From positions 1 to 30,475 of the IMG/VR virus record IMGVR_UViG_3300028044_000046: DNA of 30,475 nucleotides; one strand, written 5' to 3'. The position numbers and the translations under genes were made by a program. Source of the stretch: a virus. This document shows positions 19,502-30,475 of the stretch, one piece after another (the first letter of the stretch is position 1; each line of letters opens with the position of its first letter). The notes below the pieces were generated by a model. The model was not told the origin of the DNA. It did no database searches and worked only from the letters and a program-made list of their open reading frames with translations.

Positions 19502-20983
19502 ATGTTAGAAAGATTAAAAATATTGGTAGAAAAAACCAATCCCAGAGTTTTAGGTCAGGTACTGAAAAGTAGCAATTACATTGAATTATATGATTGGGTG
19601 GAACGTGAGACTATTAACTTACTTGATGCATCAATTAAAGAAAAAGTCTGGTACTTATTAAACAATAAGCCCAATTTTATTTGCAACCACGGGAACAAAA
19701 AAACGTTCAACCCTAAGAAGTTGCAATATGGATTCTGTGATAATATTAAGAATTGCCTTTGTTTTCAACAACACGCAAAAGAAAATTACAAACCAAGGGA
19801 TATGTCAATTGTTATTGAAAAAAGAAAAGACACCTGGTTGAAAAAATACGGAGTAGACAATGCCAGCAAAGCAGAAGGTGTGAAATCAAAAAGACGAGAA
19901 ACAATGTCAAAAAAGGACTACTCGTCAATATTTGATCAGTTGACTCATGAAAAAGAAACTTTAGGTTTCAACCAAGTAATACAAAGGGTATCTGAAACTG
20001 TCACTCCCTGTTTTTCGCGTGAAGAATATCACGGATCAAATAGGAAAAACAAATATTTATGGAAATGTAACGGTTGCCAACATCAATTTGAATCGCATGT
20101 TGATTATGGTACAATTCCGAAATGTAGTATCTGCTACCCTAAAACTGTATCAAGAGCCGAATCAGAAATAGCAACCTTCGTAAGAACACTCGGTGAAAAT
20201 ATTATAACAAATGACAAAACCATATTATCTGGAAAAGAATTAGACATTTATATCCCTGACAGAAATATTGCCATTGAGTATAATGGAATATATTGGCATT
20301 CTTCAATCAAGAAGACACCAAATTACCATGTTAACAAGATGCTAGAATGTAAAAAACAGAATATACAACTCATTCACATATTTGAAGACGAATGGCAAAC
20401 CAAACCCGAAATAGTGAAAAATAGATTGAGAAGCATTCTGGGGCACGACGATAGGGTAGCTGCTAGAAAATGTAATATAATAGAGTTAACATTTGAGGAA
20501 TACAAAAACTTCGTTGAGAAAACGCATATTCGAGGTTATGCCCATTCTACTATAAAATATGGGTTAGCGTTAGACGGTAAAATAAAAGCGGTGATGGGAT
20601 TTTCAAAATCTAGATATACCAAAGCCGGGCATGAGCTTATCCGTTACTGTTCGGACGGAACAGTAATTGGTGGAGCCGGAAAATTATTAAAACATTTTAT
20701 AAAGAAGCATAGTCCCGAATGTATCGTAACATATGCTGATAGATGTTGGAGTAATGGAAACTTATATAAAAAATTAGGATTTACTGACATTACTTCTAGT
20801 GAAGTCAATACCGGGTATTGGTATATTAAGAATGGTATAAGATATCATCGGTCTAACTTCACCAAAGCGAGACTGATTAAATTAGGATATGATCCAAACA
20901 AAAATGAATCTGCCATCATGCAAGAGTTAGGTTATACCAAAATACATGATTGCGGAAACTATAAGTTTATGCTAAATCCGTAA
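19502..20983 (+). CDS. EDxHD-type homing endonuclease with C-terminal GNAT-like domain
   Basis: A 493-residue mobile endonuclease, the only large plus-strand gene. The N-terminal part has a KYGVDNASK-type DNA-binding segment (about 113-135) and a zinc ribbon with C189/C192 and C208/C211. The Vsr-like nuclease core is at 218-300: E220/E222, D248, E259 in IAIEYNGIYWH, and H266. This resembles the core of the terminase-locus endonuclease. Residues ~320-493 look like an acyltransferase-fold domain ending DCGNYKF, often attached to such phage nucleases. It sits between moxR and the VWA gene. TATAAACA and CATAAATA boxes lie upstream, with no ribosome site. Confidence 0.85.
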   Translation: MLERLKILVEKTNPRVLGQVLKSSNYIELYDWVERETINLLDASIKEKVWYLLNNKPNFICNHGNKKTFNPKKLQYGFCDNIKNCLCFQQHAKENYKPRDMSIVIEKRKDTWLKKYGVDNASKAEGVKSKRRETMSKKDYSSIFDQLTHEKETLGFNQVIQRVSETVTPCFSREEYHGSNRKNKYLWKCNGCQHQFESHVDYGTIPKCSICYPKTVSRAESEIATFVRTLGENIITNDKTILSGKELDIYIPDRNIAIEYNGIYWHSSIKKTPNYHVNKMLECKKQNIQLIHIFEDEWQTKPEIVKNRLRSILGHDDRVAARKCNIIELTFEEYKNFVEKTHIRGYAHSTIKYGLALDGKIKAVMGFSKSRYTKAGHELIRYCSDGTVIGGAGKLLKHFIKKHSPECIVTYADRCWSNGNLYKKLGFTDITSSEVNTGYWYIKNGIRYHRSNFTKARLIKLGYDPNKNESAIMQELGYTKIHDCGNYKFMLNP

Positions 20984-25674: not shown

Positions 25675-26577
25675 CTATTTCACGCTCATGGTTTCCTGCA
25701 ACTTAGACTCGATGTAGTCTACAATTTGATCTGCGACATCAACTTCGCAGTATTTTTCAAATCCTAAAAATCCTGGTGCTGAATTGGCCTCACATACTTT
25801 GAAACCATTCTTGTCAAAAAGTAAGTCTATTCCTGCAATATGTAGTCCGCATACCCTAGCAGTTTCTCTAGCAATATTTTCAATCTCTTCTGTTACTTTA
25901 AATATTTCTCCGTGCCCACCTGCACTGATGTTTGCACGGAAGTCACCATCGGGCGCTATTCTTTTCATCGCTCCGACCACTTTGCCACCAATGACTAAGA
26001 CTCTTAAATCTTCACCGGGACGCTCATTGACATATTCTTGCACAATCAAAGTTTTTCGGGTGTTGAGACTATTGATAAACTCCATTAGTTTGTTAAAATC
26101 ACGTTTCTTCTCGCATAGGTAGACACCATCACCATGACTGCCCGTGATAACTTTAACTACGCAGGGCCAGCCGATATTATCATTTACAATTTCAATGTCA
26201 ACTGGAAATCTTACCAACATTGTATTTGGAATAGGAATATTATTTTTTACCAAAAGTTGGTTTGTTCTAAGTTTATCTTTGGCAATTTCAATACTTTTAG
26301 AACTGTTGATGCAGTCTACGCCTGATTCTTCGAATTGTCGGATCAAGGCAGTAATAAATCCATTGGTCGTCGAACCGGTTCGTGGTAGCACAAGTTTAGG
26401 TGGTTCAATACACTTGCCGTTATATTTTAGGCTATTTCCGATATCGGTTCCGATAACTATATCAAAATTTTCTGGATTGGCGATTTCGGTTTTAATTCCG
26501 CGCTTGCTAAAACTTTCTATAAGTCTAGCAGTTCCGTATTCGTCTTCGTTACGTTTGGCTAGTATTAATACCGACAT
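25675..26577 (-). CDS. RimK-like ATP-grasp ligase
   Basis: A 300-residue ATP-grasp enzyme, the same length as E. coli RimK, which adds glutamates to the C-terminus of ribosomal protein S6. It has LPRTGSTTNGF near residue 65, DKLRTNQLLVKNNIPIPNT, the ATP-binding strands WPCVVKVITGSHGDGV and IVQEYV, then DLRVLVIGGKVVGAMKR, DGDFRANISAGG, and the metal site LHIAGIDLLF with VCEANSAPGF. It probably ligates an amino acid to a protein or peptide. S6 is only one possible substrate. It overlaps the phosphoesterase gene by 29 nt and has GGAA before its ATG. Confidence 0.9.
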   Translation of the reverse strand: MSVLILAKRNEDEYGTARLIESFSKRGIKTEIANPENFDIVIGTDIGNSLKYNGKCIEPPKLVLPRTGSTTNGFITALIRQFEESGVDCINSSKSIEIAKDKLRTNQLLVKNNIPIPNTMLVRFPVDIEIVNDNIGWPCVVKVITGSHGDGVYLCEKKRDFNKLMEFINSLNTRKTLIVQEYVNERPGEDLRVLVIGGKVVGAMKRIAPDGDFRANISAGGHGEIFKVTEEIENIARETARVCGLHIAGIDLLFDKNGFKVCEANSAPGFLGFEKYCEVDVADQIVDYIESKLQETMSVK

Positions 26578-27325
26578 TTGATTCCGTCCATGTTATAATT
26601 TCCCAACTACCGTTGTGATGTTCAACTAGTGCGGTGCAAGACTCTACCCAGTCACCGTCATTCATATATATTATATCGTTAATTGTTTTAATTTCGGCAT
26701 TGTGGATATGTCCACAAATTACTCCATCAAATCCTTTTCGTTTAGCATACGATGTTATGTTAAGTTCAAACTTAAACATAAAGTCAACCGCTTTTTTAAC
26801 TTTGTGCTTTAGGAACTTTGATAGAGACCAATAGCCAAACCCAAACCTATGTCTAATCCAGTTGAATCTACTGTTAAGTCCTAACACGAAATCATATGCT
26901 CGATCACCCAAAAAGTTAAGCCACGGGGCGACGCGAGTAATGCCGTCAAACAAGTCGCCATGCACTACCATGTACTTCTTGCCGTCTACTCCCACATGAG
27001 TTGTGGTGTTGCATATTTCAATTTTGCCGAAATTGGCGGCATAAGGTATCATGGGTCTTAAAAATTCGTCGTGGTTTCCTGCAACATAGACAACTCTAGT
27101 ATTACGTTTGCTATGTCCAAGAATGCGTCTAACTACGTTAGTGTGAGACTGCTTCCACTTCATACGATTCTGCTGAATCTTCCATGCATCGATAATATCA
27201 CCCACGAGATATAAAGTCTCGCAGGTATTATGCTTTAGGAAATTGTTAAGTAATTCAGCCTTGCAATCTTTAGAGCCCAAATGAACATCGCTGATAAAGA
27301 TTGTTTTATATGTGCTTAATGTCAT
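26549..27325 (-). CDS. LpxH-like metallophosphoesterase
   Basis: A 258-residue calcineurin-like enzyme with the full metal set: SDVHLG, LVGDIIDAW, GNHDE, VVHGD and CGHIHNAE. The spacing and the KAELLNNFL...ETLYLVGD text match UDP-2,3-diacylglucosamine pyrophosphatase (LpxH/LpxH2) relatives, which act in lipid A synthesis. The phage enzyme could equally split another pyrophosphate. It is co-transcribed with the RimK-like gene. TGATAAATA lies 20 nt upstream and GGGGAC before the ATG. Confidence 0.9.
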   Translation of the reverse strand: MTLSTYKTIFISDVHLGSKDCKAELLNNFLKHNTCETLYLVGDIIDAWKIQQNRMKWKQSHTNVVRRILGHSKRNTRVVYVAGNHDEFLRPMIPYAANFGKIEICNTTTHVGVDGKKYMVVHGDLFDGITRVAPWLNFLGDRAYDFVLGLNSRFNWIRHRFGFGYWSLSKFLKHKVKKAVDFMFKFELNITSYAKRKGFDGVICGHIHNAEIKTINDIIYMNDGDWVESCTALVEHHNGSWEIITWTESNVGINTSQT

Positions 27326-27470: not shown

Positions 27471-27814
27471 GGGGCGCTAGTTGATTCTGTTTCCAAGTTC
27501 AACTAGCAAAACTCATATGGGGTTATGCAGCTAAGCGCATGTCCATGATGCTATCATTGTCGTTAGCATTTAGTTTTTTGAACTAATTGACGGTCGTGTC
27601 TTACCGGAAATCTCGCTTGTCTTTTCGTCGCCAATCGATACTAATTCGCCCCCATCAGAAACACATTAAGTAGGCTCGCATATCTGTCCTACTTGTTACC
27701 TAGTAAAGGGCTCGCGAGTTTCCATCCTTGCGGGCTGGAATAATGTGCTTGTGGTGGAGGCGCCGAACATCGCAGTTCGGGTCTTGTACAACTATTAACT
27801 CGGTCATCAATTAC
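27471..27814 (-). ncRNA. ssrA: Circularly permuted (two-piece) tmRNA precursor
   Basis: In minus-strand order the gene holds the acceptor piece, an intervening segment and then the coding piece, the permuted order of alphaproteobacterial ssrA. The acceptor piece ends CGCCTCC-A-CCA (27752-27762). The coding piece begins GGGGGCG at 27653, pairing with CGCCTCC over all seven positions (one G-U). The intervening segment (27654-27751) is closed by CACATTA/TAATGTG (27741-27747 with 27662-27668). The coding piece carries a tag frame at 27523-27567. A 9-bp hairpin (27476-27484/27499-27507) lies near the 3' end. It rescues stalled ribosomes with SmpB. The stem before the acceptor end is CCGAAC/GTTCGG with a short loop TGCGAT, not a standard TTCGAAT loop. 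Exact 5' and 3' ends are estimates. Confidence 0.92.
27523..27567 (-). other. tmRNA proteolysis-tag reading frame
   Basis: GCT AAC GAC AAT ... GCT GCA TAA encodes ANDNDSIMDMRLAA then stop. The ANDN start is typical of alphaproteobacterial tags (SspB side) and LAA is the ClpXP-type degron. The middle (DSIMDMR) is unusual, lacking the common A-L/V before the final AA and having two Met and an Arg. Confidence 0.9.
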
Positions 27815-27821
27815 ATTTATA

Positions 27822-27850
27822 TTTATACATTAAATGTATAATAGTGTCAA
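27822..27850 (-). promoter_or_regulatory. Consensus sigma70 promoter of tmRNA
   Basis: TTGACA (27845-27850), a 17-bp spacer and TATAAA (27822-27827), predicting a start near 27815, just before the acceptor piece. The -10 reads TATAAATA, so it is also an exact late box, and the RNA could be made throughout infection. Confidence 0.85.
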
Positions 27851-27946: not shown

Positions 27947-30475
27947 TTAAATCTTAGACTTGTCGAATCGTTCTTTCAGCCAGGCCCATTCATAACTAAG
28001 TTTCAACTTGTTGAAGTCTCCGCCAACTTTATCATAATATTCTGTGGCGTCAATTGCACCTTTGATACTGTATTGACTGAACTTTCCTTCTGCATTGTTT
28101 AGCCAAGCATCTAATCTAGTGCGAGCAATATCACTATCTTCTGCCTTTAACTTCAACACCTCTCTAAACGAAGTACGCCAAGTAGAAAACTCGTCTGTGT
28201 TATAGTTAGCGATACCAGACAACAACGGTACTACTTCGTGTTCATCGTCTAGAGTGAAGTCTAATCCCTTACCACTGTTGGCTAGAGTGAGTTTCTTATT
28301 GTAACATATAAGGCCTTGGTGACCATAAATCAATCCATTGACAGGATTCTTTGCATAGAAGATATAATGCTTTGCGATTTGCATTCTATCAGGCTGCCAG
28401 GACCAGTCAAATTTGGGGTCGATCTTTAGTTTGGCGAACACAGTAAAAGCCCAGGGTGTCTCGCTTGCTTCTAGTGCTGCATGATATGCTTGAACACGGC
28501 CATTGACTCCATCAACTCTCACTACACGGTTCTTGATATCCTTTGTGATCTCTTGTAGATGTTCCCAGTTTTCTTCGGCACCTGTTTCTCCGTTGCTCAA
28601 GTATACAATATCCATGGGCGAGGACACGGCTAATTTAGCTGCTCTCTTGATATAGGGATAATCGTATAATTCTTTCTTGACATACTCTTTAGCTTCATAT
28701 GGAACAGTAATTCGAGTTGCCCCGGTACTCGTAACTAAGATGTTTTTAGTCTCGGGTGCCCACAGATTCATAGGTTCAACTTCTGCCACGTCGATGTTTT
28801 CATTGTCAGACGTAGTGATAGTTGCATATGGAAAATCTTCTATATGCATTATTGCTTCAATCGATGTATCGTTGGTTGTAACAATGATTGGTTCTGGTAA
28901 TCTATTTACCTTCATCACACCGTTATAGTTGACCTTTGGATAATCTTCTAACAACGACATATCATATATGATCTCCTTAGTCTTGTTTACGTCAACAAGG
29001 AAAGTATCTCCAAACTTCTGTTTACCACTGGCAAATACATGAAGGTTATCTCTGGCAAAAGGATCACACATGTAAGAGAAATCAAAGGATGAGTAGTCGC
29101 ATACACTGCTGCAAAGCCACAGATAATGTTCTTTCTTTTCAGGCAATGATGTAACGATATCCTTTATTGTCTGTAGATAACTGTCGTTGTACTTGACAAC
29201 CGTTACATTTTTACCTGATGTCTTAGCAGTTATTTGCCGGATAACATTGTCAAGTTCTTTATTGCCGTGGTCGACGACAATGGTGTCGTATACACATTCT
29301 GTTGCTTTGGCCCGCATCGTCTTAACAAAGTTCAGGTTAGATAGATGTTCGATGATATTAATATATTTTGTATCTTCTGCAAAAGTTTCTCTATTGACTA
29401 AGAATGTAGAACCCCAATGTGACCACTGTGTGCCGAATACATTTACCATTTTCATCTGCCAGGGGTTAGGGTAATATTCGAAGTCGAAGTCACTATAGTC
29501 AAGTTCTGAGTTAAGAACCCAGACCAATTCACTCGTTGCACGGTTGACACACCGCTTTATAGTATCGACCCACGAATTAAGATACCGTGTCTTTTGAATC
29601 TTTGGGTGTAATAGTTTGAGTGCATCAAATCTTGCTTGTGATTCTATGTTACCCCTGTCAATATAAAACATATCAGCCTTATTGAATATCTTAAACAATG
29701 TCTTTTCATCAAGTTTAGTGTTGCCTTCAATGAAGTTAAAAGATGTTTTACCAGCCAGATAATTTTTACCGCTTACAAAATAAGTCTGAGTAAGTTCAGA
29801 CTCAGTACTACCAAAAACGTGTACATAATCTAATTGATATGCAGTTTCTACTATCTCAGGGCGCCAACTAAAGTCAAACGTTGAATAATCAATGTTTTTA
29901 TGCATTGCCCAAAATAGTTCGTTGGGGTGTTTTTTAATTAGGTCGTCTAATGTCGTCTCGATATAGTATCGTGATACAATTACTTCTTGCTCTGTGTGTT
30001 CTTTAGATATCCAATTGAGTTTAACCACTATCCCGTCGTTGTTTGGAGAAACATATCTTGGACCATTGGTGGCGTCTTCTAGTGTTCCAAACTGATAGAT
30101 GTACGGAGGAGCTTCAGGATGCGGAACCCATGAGAAGTCAAAGGTAGATACATCTATATCATTGATTTCCCAATTGTCCTTGCTTGGTAATAACTTTGCC
30201 TTAACGTCTTCGACATATTTGTATTCAGTTGCGTTAGGTGCAGTATATGTCGGGCCTCCCCTATTATTCCATACTGTAGCGAATGCATATATAAAAACAG
30301 GTTCTCTTGGGTCGGGTCGCCAACTAAAGTCAAATTTAGTTCTATCGATATTGCTAGGAATCTGCCACTTATCCCATTCTGGAAGCACAACAACATCATT
30401 CGTCATGTACTTGCGTTCGGTAGCACCTTCACAATGATATTCTAGTGTAGGAATGATCTCGGCATCGATATACTT
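27947..30475 (-). CDS. Glycosyltransferase-like protein with FDFSW repeats (5'-partial)
   Basis: At least 842 codons. The frame stays open from the ATG at 30406 to the window edge, and the residues there (GATERKYM) align with the repeat text NATEYKYV further on, so the gene continues upstream. About six repeats have the core D-x-S-x-F-D-F-S-W-x-P followed by an aromatic 'YIYxFGT' strand. Between them are segments like DIVYLSNGETGAEENWEHLQ and RVDGVNGRVQAYHAALEASE, which recall phage nucleotide-sugar-transferase-like proteins (usual form FISYDEP...GVxGI..AH..A). The expected acidic metal motif after the last segment reads FTVFAKLKID here, so this copy may be inactive. A role in glycosylation is inferred. 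Confidence 0.75.
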   Translation of the reverse strand, partial: KYIDAEIIPTLEYHCEGATERKYMTNDVVVLPEWDKWQIPSNIDRTKFDFSWRPDPREPVFIYAFATVWNNRGGPTYTAPNATEYKYVEDVKAKLLPSKDNWEINDIDVSTFDFSWVPHPEAPPYIYQFGTLEDATNGPRYVSPNNDGIVVKLNWISKEHTEQEVIVSRYYIETTLDDLIKKHPNELFWAMHKNIDYSTFDFSWRPEIVETAYQLDYVHVFGSTESELTQTYFVSGKNYLAGKTSFNFIEGNTKLDEKTLFKIFNKADMFYIDRGNIESQARFDALKLLHPKIQKTRYLNSWVDTIKRCVNRATSELVWVLNSELDYSDFDFEYYPNPWQMKMVNVFGTQWSHWGSTFLVNRETFAEDTKYINIIEHLSNLNFVKTMRAKATECVYDTIVVDHGNKELDNVIRQITAKTSGKNVTVVKYNDSYLQTIKDIVTSLPEKKEHYLWLCSSVCDYSSFDFSYMCDPFARDNLHVFASGKQKFGDTFLVDVNKTKEIIYDMSLLEDYPKVNYNGVMKVNRLPEPIIVTTNDTSIEAIMHIEDFPYATITTSDNENIDVAEVEPMNLWAPETKNILVTSTGATRITVPYEAKEYVKKELYDYPYIKRAAKLAVSSPMDIVYLSNGETGAEENWEHLQEITKDIKNRVVRVDGVNGRVQAYHAALEASETPWAFTVFAKLKIDPKFDWSWQPDRMQIAKHYIFYAKNPVNGLIYGHQGLICYNKKLTLANSGKGLDFTLDDEHEVVPLLSGIANYNTDEFSTWRTSFREVLKLKAEDSDIARTRLDAWLNNAEGKFSQYSIKGAIDATEYYDKVGGDFNKLKLSYEWAWLKERFDKSKI

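What the first reader, a model, noticed from the sequence alone, without database searches (positions are those of the whole stretch)
27471..27850. Phage-encoded circularly permuted tmRNA
A complete permuted ssrA gene is visible on the minus strand: consensus promoter, acceptor piece with CCA, an intervening loop closed by an extra 7-bp helix, a coding piece whose first seven bases pair with the acceptor strand, and an in-frame tag. A lytic phage carrying its own two-piece tmRNA could sustain ribosome recycling during host shutdown or redirect tagged proteins. Two-piece tmRNA is known from alphaproteobacteria, some betaproteobacteria and cyanobacteria, so this also marks the likely host group.
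Basis: partly seen in the sequence, partly recalled or inferred. Interest (0 to 1): 0.88.

Follow-up and report, generated by a model that had tools for sequence, protein, structure and literature searches.

The report
Phage split tmRNA with cargo slot
A large freshwater-type phage carries its own two-piece version of the bacterial ribosome-rescue RNA (tmRNA), and in many related phages the piece of RNA that must be cut out of its precursor carries an extra small gene or structured RNA, an arrangement that seems not to have been described.

Summary
A circularly permuted (two-piece) tmRNA gene lies on the minus strand at about 27814-27474: Rfam tmRNA_permuted 101.9 bits, E=5e-19; alpha_tmRNA 96.6 bits. 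CCA, a 7-bp acceptor stem with the G3:U70 alanine identity pair, and the tag ANDNDSIMDMRLAA are intact. The contig is phage, and 39 of 50 related phage records carry a permuted tmRNA over the Rfam cut-off, in the inspected loci downstream of the same gene. Phage-encoded permuted tmRNA is already known (phage Melnitz, PMC9004378). Host group cannot be read from it: one phage clade holds alpha-type and beta-type copies. The new part is the intervening sequence (IVS, the stretch between CCA and G1 that processing removes). In 242 unique viral copies it is long (median 91 nt; 37 in alphaproteobacteria) and closed by a covarying ~10-bp helix. In many it holds a small protein gene: 57 of 123 long slot clusters against 8.6 expected, including thioredoxin and DUF6356 proteins, mostly under purifying selection; near-identical tmRNAs hold unrelated cargo. 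Cultured Melnitz has an unannotated one. The window's 98-nt slot holds structured RNA, no ORF. Trans-translation with host SmpB is inferred; RNA data are lacking.

The parts
27820..27850 (-). Promoter: TTGACA (27850-27845), 17-nt spacer, TATAAATA (27827-27820)
   Evidence: Read directly. TTGAC..TA-type promoters lie upstream of 98 of 239 viral copies against 3.9 in shuffled upstream sequence
27752..27814 (-). Acceptor piece (5' piece of the precursor), ending in CCA at 27754-27752
   Evidence: RF04321 alignment, model positions from 1, 101.9 bits
27763..27780 (-). T arm CCGAA-CUGCGAUG-UUCGG, unusual 8-nt loop (or 6-bp stem with 6-nt loop)
   Evidence: Sequence; precursor fold gives 6 bp + 6 nt; other parsed relatives 5 bp + 7 nt
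27755..27762 (-). 3' strand of the acceptor stem CGCCTCC (27762-27756) plus discriminator A73 (27755)
   Evidence: Pairs 7 of 7 with 27653-27647, G3:U70
27654..27751 (-). Intervening sequence (IVS, 'slot'), 98 nt, to be removed by processing; structured, no ORF
   Evidence: Between CCA and G1; MFE -24.5 kcal/mol, z -1.7
27741..27750 (-). 5' arm of the slot-closing helix (AAGCACATTA)
   Evidence: 10 contiguous pairs with 27668-27659; in the MFE fold
27659..27668 (-). 3' arm of the slot-closing helix
   Evidence: As above; the helix covaries across 170 viral slot clusters, 94% paired against 65% with partners swapped
27474..27653 (-). Coding piece: G1 at 27653, acceptor 5' strand GGGGGCG at 27653-27647; 3' end approximate
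   Evidence: RF04321 and RF01849 alignments
27523..27567 (-). Tag reading frame ANDNDSIMDMRLAA plus stop TAA, resume codon GCT 27567-27565
   Evidence: ARAGORN at the relaxed threshold gives the same tag
27476..27507 (-). 3'-terminal hairpin GCTAGTTGA..TCAACTAGC with the conserved loop TTGGAAACAGAA
   Evidence: RF01849 alignment, precursor fold

Best explanation
27814-27474(-) is a functional, phage-borne two-piece tmRNA gene. It is transcribed from its own promoter as one precursor. Host enzymes (RNase P at TGAT^G1; 3' processing at CCA) are expected to cut out the 98-nt IVS. The acceptor and coding pieces stay paired, are charged with alanine by host AlaRS through G3:U70, bind host SmpB (none was found in the related phage records) and rescue stalled ribosomes during infection, adding the tag (A)ANDNDSIMDMRLAA. 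The IVS of this and other viral copies is a helix-closed slot that has become a site for exchangeable cargo: structured RNA in the window, small protein genes in many relatives. Shown here: gene anatomy, conservation and synteny, IVS length, closing helix, nested ORFs with Shine-Dalgarno sequences and purifying selection. Inferred: processing, charging, trans-translation, expression of nested ORFs from the precursor or the excised IVS, and the benefit to the phage.
For: Covariance-model hits at E=5e-19 and 2e-25. 39 of 50 related phage records carry RF04321 over the cut-off, in the inspected loci just downstream of the same large gene. Compensatory acceptor changes in the clade with U70 kept (CAGGTCC/GGGCCTG, CGCCTCC/GGGGGCG, CACCTCC/GGGGGTG, CATCTCC/GGGGATG, CCGGTCC/GGGCCGG). 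218 of 242 viral tags end in LAA. No SmpB (PF01668) in 28 related records, with 10 control genomes positive. Slot: 242 unique viral copies, median 91 nt, against 37 nt in 106 alphaproteobacterial copies and 30 nt in 58 further bacterial copies. Closing helix 94% paired against 65% with partners swapped. ORF over 75% of the slot in 57 of 123 long clusters against 8.6 with slot ends fixed; ATG plus Shine-Dalgarno 39 against 1.7; in 37 of the 57 the stop is the TGA of TGAT^G1. dN/dS 0.04-0.50 in ten testable families. Thioredoxin 4e-21 and DUF6356 7e-10 nested. tmRNAs with flanks over 90% identical have unrelated slots. Cultured Melnitz: 142-nt slot with an ORF; against a homologous nested ORF in L311, 8 identical, 14 synonymous, 3 nonsynonymous codons.
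Against: No RNA or protein data. The window's own slot has no ORF and only a modest folding z-score (-1.7). The window's T loop is abnormal and several P2 pairs of the models are broken, so partial decay is possible. My detector requires a 7/7 acceptor stem, G3:U70 and TCGA, so those features in the 242-copy set are by construction, and two of the three scans that fed it required TGATGGG. One nested-ORF case lies in a bacterial contig (L520, Rhodobiaceae MAG), so the trait is not strictly viral. Two small ORF families have dN/dS of 0.73-0.85 (few changes). ORFs that run open through the slot end are not clearly in excess as a class (15 against 9.7). The bacterial control is almost wholly alphaproteobacterial.
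Confidence: 0.85

Rival explanations
1. Passive remnant: a tmRNA captured from a host and now decaying in the window phage, with no function there.
For: Odd T loop and imperfect P2 pairs; ARAGORN at default misses it.
Against: Intact acceptor stem, CCA, tag and promoter; clade-wide retention at one place; the same sequence in a second record; slot-closing helix intact.
Confidence: 0.1
2. Decoy or altered tmRNA: the phage RNA competes with host tmRNA for SmpB/AlaRS, or swaps the tag so that phage products escape or host products are routed to degradation.
For: None of 153 viral tags equals any of 56 tags of the bacterial sample. A tag-less phage tmRNA (DS6A) inhibits endogenous tmRNA when expressed in E. 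coli (PMC11915505).
Against: Phage tags keep the normal ANDx...LAA ends, as expected for ordinary proteolysis tags; the bacterial sample is mainly rhizobial and other alphaproteobacteria and does not match these phages' likely hosts.
Confidence: 0.2
3. The nested reading frames are not genes: long slots are stable RNA structures, and the frames are chance.
For: 66 of 123 long slot clusters have no such ORF yet keep the closing helix.
Against: 57 observed against 8.6 with slot ends fixed; ATG plus Shine-Dalgarno 39 against 1.7; dN/dS well below 1; recognisable thioredoxin and DUF6356 domains; 14 synonymous against 3 nonsynonymous codons between Melnitz and L311.
Confidence: 0.05

Closest known systems
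Permuted (two-piece) tmRNA, Rfam RF04321 / RF01849 alpha_tmRNA
   Same: Gene order acceptor piece - IVS - coding piece, CCA, G3:U70, tag frame, 3' hairpin; both models hit above their cut-offs
   Different: Long helix-closed IVS and abnormal T loop; in relatives the IVS carries genes
ssrA of Methylophilales phage Melnitz EXVC044M (PMC9004378; MZ577097)
   Same: Phage-encoded alpha-type permuted tmRNA in a T4-like phage; found here to have a 142-nt slot with the same kind of closing helix
   Different: Followed by a glutamine riboswitch (RF01739); its slot holds an ORF, the window's does not; no close phage relationship was found
Permuted tmRNA with a tRNA-Ala gene inside its IVS (GCA-2688965 sp002688965.2, PMC11915505)
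   Same: A foreign gene nested in the IVS of a permuted tmRNA
   Different: One nominally archaeal case, reported as unique, and a tRNA gene rather than a protein gene
tmRNA group I introns, some with homing endonuclease genes (PMC11915505)
   Same: A tmRNA gene that hosts a protein gene inside an excised segment
   Different: Self-splicing intron in the T loop of tmRNA genes; here the IVS is removed by tRNA-type processing and none of the slot proteins I identified is an endonuclease

Membership tests
tmRNA, permuted form (RF04321) | Covariance-model score above the gathering threshold | tested here: met
   101.9 against 47 bits
tmRNA, permuted form (RF04321) | Acceptor piece with CCA upstream of the coding piece; 7-bp acceptor stem formed between the pieces | tested here: met
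   27762-27756 with 27653-27647, CCA at 27754-27752
tmRNA, permuted form (RF04321) | G3:U70 pair and A73 for alanine charging | tested here: met
   Sequence
tmRNA, permuted form (RF04321) | Normal T arm (5 bp, 7-nt loop) | tested here: inconclusive
   8-nt loop, or 6 bp with 6-nt loop, in the window; normal in the other parsed relatives
tmRNA, permuted form (RF04321) | In-frame tag with resume codon, ending in small hydrophobic residues | tested here: met
   ANDNDSIMDMRLAA* 27567-27523
tmRNA, permuted form (RF04321) | Transcript cut into two stable pieces | not testable with these tools
   Needs Northern blot or RNA-seq
tmRNA, permuted form (RF04321) | Works with SmpB in trans-translation | not testable with these tools
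   No phage SmpB found in 28 related records; host SmpB must serve
Alpha-type tmRNA (RF01849) | Best-scoring clade model is the alphaproteobacterial one | tested here: met
   96.6 bits, cut-off 50; but the clade is mixed alpha and beta, so no host inference
Skipping-rope RNA (RF02924) | Covariance-model hit in the slot | tested here: not met
   No match in the window slot up to E=5; relative L104 has one at 46.8 bits inside its slot
Slot with nested protein gene | ORF covering most of the IVS | tested here: not met
   No such ORF in the window's 98-nt slot; met in 57 of 123 long viral slot clusters

The most novel reading that the evidence does not exclude
The IVS of phage permuted tmRNAs is a general, exchangeable expression slot: small protein genes (or structured RNAs) sit inside a helix-closed loop directly after CCA, use a Shine-Dalgarno sequence that often lies in the closing helix, and commonly end with the TGA of TGAT^G1. 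tmRNA processing would then release a minimal mRNA, or a stop-less one where the frame runs on, coupling maturation of the ribosome-rescue RNA to expression of the cargo.
Probability: 0.5. Interest if true: 0.8.

Novelty: new variant of a known kind. Interest (0 to 1): 0.62.

Why it matters
tmRNA is treated as a finished machine whose intervening sequence is waste. If phages use that segment as a cargo site, then (i) a class of small phage proteins (membrane peptides, thioredoxin, DUF6356) has been overlooked because it lies inside an RNA gene (Melnitz has one unannotated); (ii) the maturation of a ribosome-rescue RNA and expression of a protein become linked on one transcript, which can be tested directly in cultured Melnitz; and (iii) tmRNA annotation should check the IVS, since long inserts drop copies below the covariance-model cut-off (L054, 40.9 bits against 47).

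Tried and rejected
ARAGORN at default: no call on the window, so absence in ARAGORN is not evidence of absence. Host inference from tmRNA type: rejected, because one phage clade holds both types. Window slot as skipping-rope RNA: no match. tRNAs in slots: ARAGORN finds none in 242 slots, although L070 looks tRNA-like by eye; not claimed. BLASTN of the tmRNA against cultured phages: only weak partial matches; one, Mesorhizobium phage Cp1R7A-A1, does hold a permuted tmRNA with a 93-nt slot, unannotated in its record. Looking for the nested membrane protein in cultured phages: none. The DUF6356 relative in phage C48C1 is not in a tmRNA slot that the detector recognises. HTVC008M match: lies over an annotated hypothetical protein gene, not followed up. 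'Open' frames that run through the slot end: not clearly enriched as a class, so only conserved families are named. Betaproteobacterial control: too few genomes with permuted tmRNA (1 of 399, then 4 of 120), only one of which my detector parsed (slot 30 nt).

Full report
1. The observation. Rfam's permuted-tmRNA model matches the window at 27814-27523(-) with 101.9 bits (cut-off 47, E=5e-19), and the alphaproteobacterial model matches 27870-27476(-) with 96.6 bits. ARAGORN finds nothing at default but at half threshold reports a permuted tmRNA with the tag ANDNDSIMDMRLAA. Read from the sequence: promoter TTGACA-17-TATAAATA at 27850-27820; T arm 27780-27763; acceptor 3' strand 27762-27756, A73, CCA 27754-27752; intervening sequence (IVS, here also 'slot') 27751-27654; G1 at 27653 with acceptor 5' strand 27653-27647 (7 of 7 pairs, G3:U70); tag 27567-27523; 3' hairpin 27507-27476. 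The slot-closing helix is 10 contiguous pairs, 27750-27741 with 27668-27659, and appears in the MFE fold of the slot (z -1.7) and of the whole precursor (z -2.9). The T loop is abnormal (8 nt, or 6 bp + 6 nt).

2. It is phage DNA. The window encodes a terminase large subunit, a UvsX-like recombinase, a T4-type single-strand binding protein, thymidylate synthase, an AAA ATPase and a homing endonuclease; the record is an IMG/VR virus contig. The 819-aa gene just upstream (27947-30406) has relatives in at least 95 viral contigs, on contigs up to 364 kb.

3. Conservation. 39 of 50 related records carry RF04321 above the cut-off; in the loci I inspected the copy lies right after the same gene. The acceptor stem varies by compensation with U70 kept. 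The copies score as alpha-type or beta-type within one phage clade, and acceptor and tag types are mixed, so the host group cannot be read from them. No SmpB was found in 28 of these records, with 10 of 14 control genomes positive, so the host's would be needed.

4. The intervening sequence. With a purpose-written detector (T arm, 7/7 acceptor, G3:U70, TCGA) applied to synteny-found loci and two pattern scans of IMG/VR I obtained 242 unique viral copies with a tag. Slots are 9-382 nt, median 91. In 106 alphaproteobacterial copies found with one of the same patterns the median is 37, and in 58 further bacterial copies from a phylum-wide search, to which the unusually long hits were deliberately added, it is 30. 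In 170 viral slot clusters the ten closing pairs are 94% paired, against 65% when 3' ends are dealt out among slots, with many compensating pair types.

5. Cargo. Of 123 slot clusters of at least 80 nt, 57 hold an ORF covering at least 75% of the slot; with the slot ends fixed and interiors shuffled 8.6 are expected (4.8+2.8+0.9), and for slots of at least 150 nt 25 of 35 against 0.9. Requiring ATG and a Shine-Dalgarno sequence: 39 against 1.7, maximum 6 in 200 shuffles. In 37 of 57 the stop is the TGA of the conserved TGAT before G1. Comparing related slots, dN/dS is 0.04 (CxC..CCGxC protein), 0.09, 0.10, 0.11, 0.24, 0.27, 0.28, 0.30, 0.38 and 0.50 in ten families, 0.73 and 0.85 in two small ones, and undefined in two with no synonymous change. 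Recognisable proteins are a thioredoxin (L196, Pfam 4e-21) and DUF6356 (L076, 7e-10). Relatives whose tmRNA flanks are over 90% identical have unrelated slots, for example L042 (141 nt, ORF), L043 (71 nt, helix) and L076 (178 nt, DUF6356). L104 has an Rfam skipping-rope RNA in its slot.

6. A cultured example. The published tmRNA of phage Melnitz (MZ577097) has a 142-nt slot with SD GGAG and the unannotated ORF MFKWLSKTRLVVITRDYFRERNRKADAKIPKYLSG..., which runs in frame past G1. Against the homologous slot ORF of L311: 8 identical, 14 synonymous and 3 nonsynonymous codons over 25.

7. Mechanism, shown and inferred. Shown by sequence: a complete gene, retained in a clade, with a slot that tolerates and exchanges cargo. 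Established knowledge: permuted transcripts are cut by tRNA-processing enzymes into two pieces held by base pairing (PMC11915505, PMC9004378); G3:U70 directs alanylation (own knowledge). Inferred: that this copy is processed, charged and used in trans-translation during infection; that the nested ORFs are translated from the precursor or the excised IVS; and that ORFs running past G1 become stop-less on processing.

8. Known and new. Phage two-piece tmRNA is known (PMC9004378: 53 by ARAGORN in 18,146 genomes; PMC11915505: 79 phage tmRNA sequences of all forms). The nearest precedent for cargo is one tRNA-Ala gene in the IVS of a nominally archaeal copy, called unique there. I found no report of protein genes in the IVS in nine full-text searches of an open-access library; two papers I looked up by id, one of them on two-piece tmRNA, were not held, so the priority claim is provisional. 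The window copy itself is a new member of a known kind; the slot makes the group a new variant.

9. Limits. No expression data. The window's slot has no ORF. The control is mostly alphaproteobacterial. One slot ORF (L520) lies in a Rhodobiaceae MAG, so the trait is enriched in, not exclusive to, viral contigs.

Noticed in passing
L636 (Melnitz MZ577097, 45984-46436): The published Melnitz tmRNA contains an unannotated ORF in its IVS that runs in frame past G1 into the coding piece, so it would lose its stop codon on processing.
   Followed up: partly
L104 1568-1660 (same slot as L044): An Rfam skipping-rope RNA (RF02924, 46.8 bits) lies wholly within the tmRNA IVS; some 'skipping-rope' phage RNAs may be tmRNA intervening sequences.
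   Followed up: no
L520 / G053:C12:6256-6625: The only RF04321 hit in a Rhodobiaceae MAG (MED766) has a 184-nt IVS with an apparent 49-aa ORF (MQKIKDIIKIAIGLEVIVILAFL...), so slot ORFs may also occur in streamlined marine bacteria.
   Followed up: partly
L145, L152, L196 and others: Some phage tags are very long (31 aa, for example ANADTFDFSAMSFTGNTVRGAANESRFALAA), and several look internally duplicated or fused.
   Followed up: no
L311, L354, L327, L340, L296, L356, L362, Melnitz: A recurring slot-protein family ends in a [KR]YL[SG] motif (KIPKYLSG, TPIRYLSG, NVPKYLGG, KRIKYLGL).
   Followed up: partly
L351, L361, L306, L347: Slots of 159-186 nt seem to hold two overlapping short ORFs, the second being the ...WSICADI... 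membrane protein.
   Followed up: no
window 25675-26577(-) and 26549-27325(-): A RimK-type ATP-grasp ligase (PF08443, 1.4e-51) and a calcineurin-like phosphoesterase follow the tmRNA; relative L083 has a COG2908 RNA motif (RF02939, 59.7 bits) near its tmRNA.
   Followed up: no
window 19502-20983(+): A homing endonuclease gene (phrog_3339, 2e-114) on the plus strand among otherwise minus-strand phage genes.
   Followed up: no
L122 2419-2512 (MT188704): Mesorhizobium phage Cp1R7A-A1 has a permuted tmRNA (tag ANDNHFEARALAA, 93-nt slot without an obvious ORF) that is not annotated in its record.
   Followed up: partly
window 27780-27763: T arm with an extra C (8-nt loop) unlike the other parsed relatives; identical in the second record L002.
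   Followed up: partly
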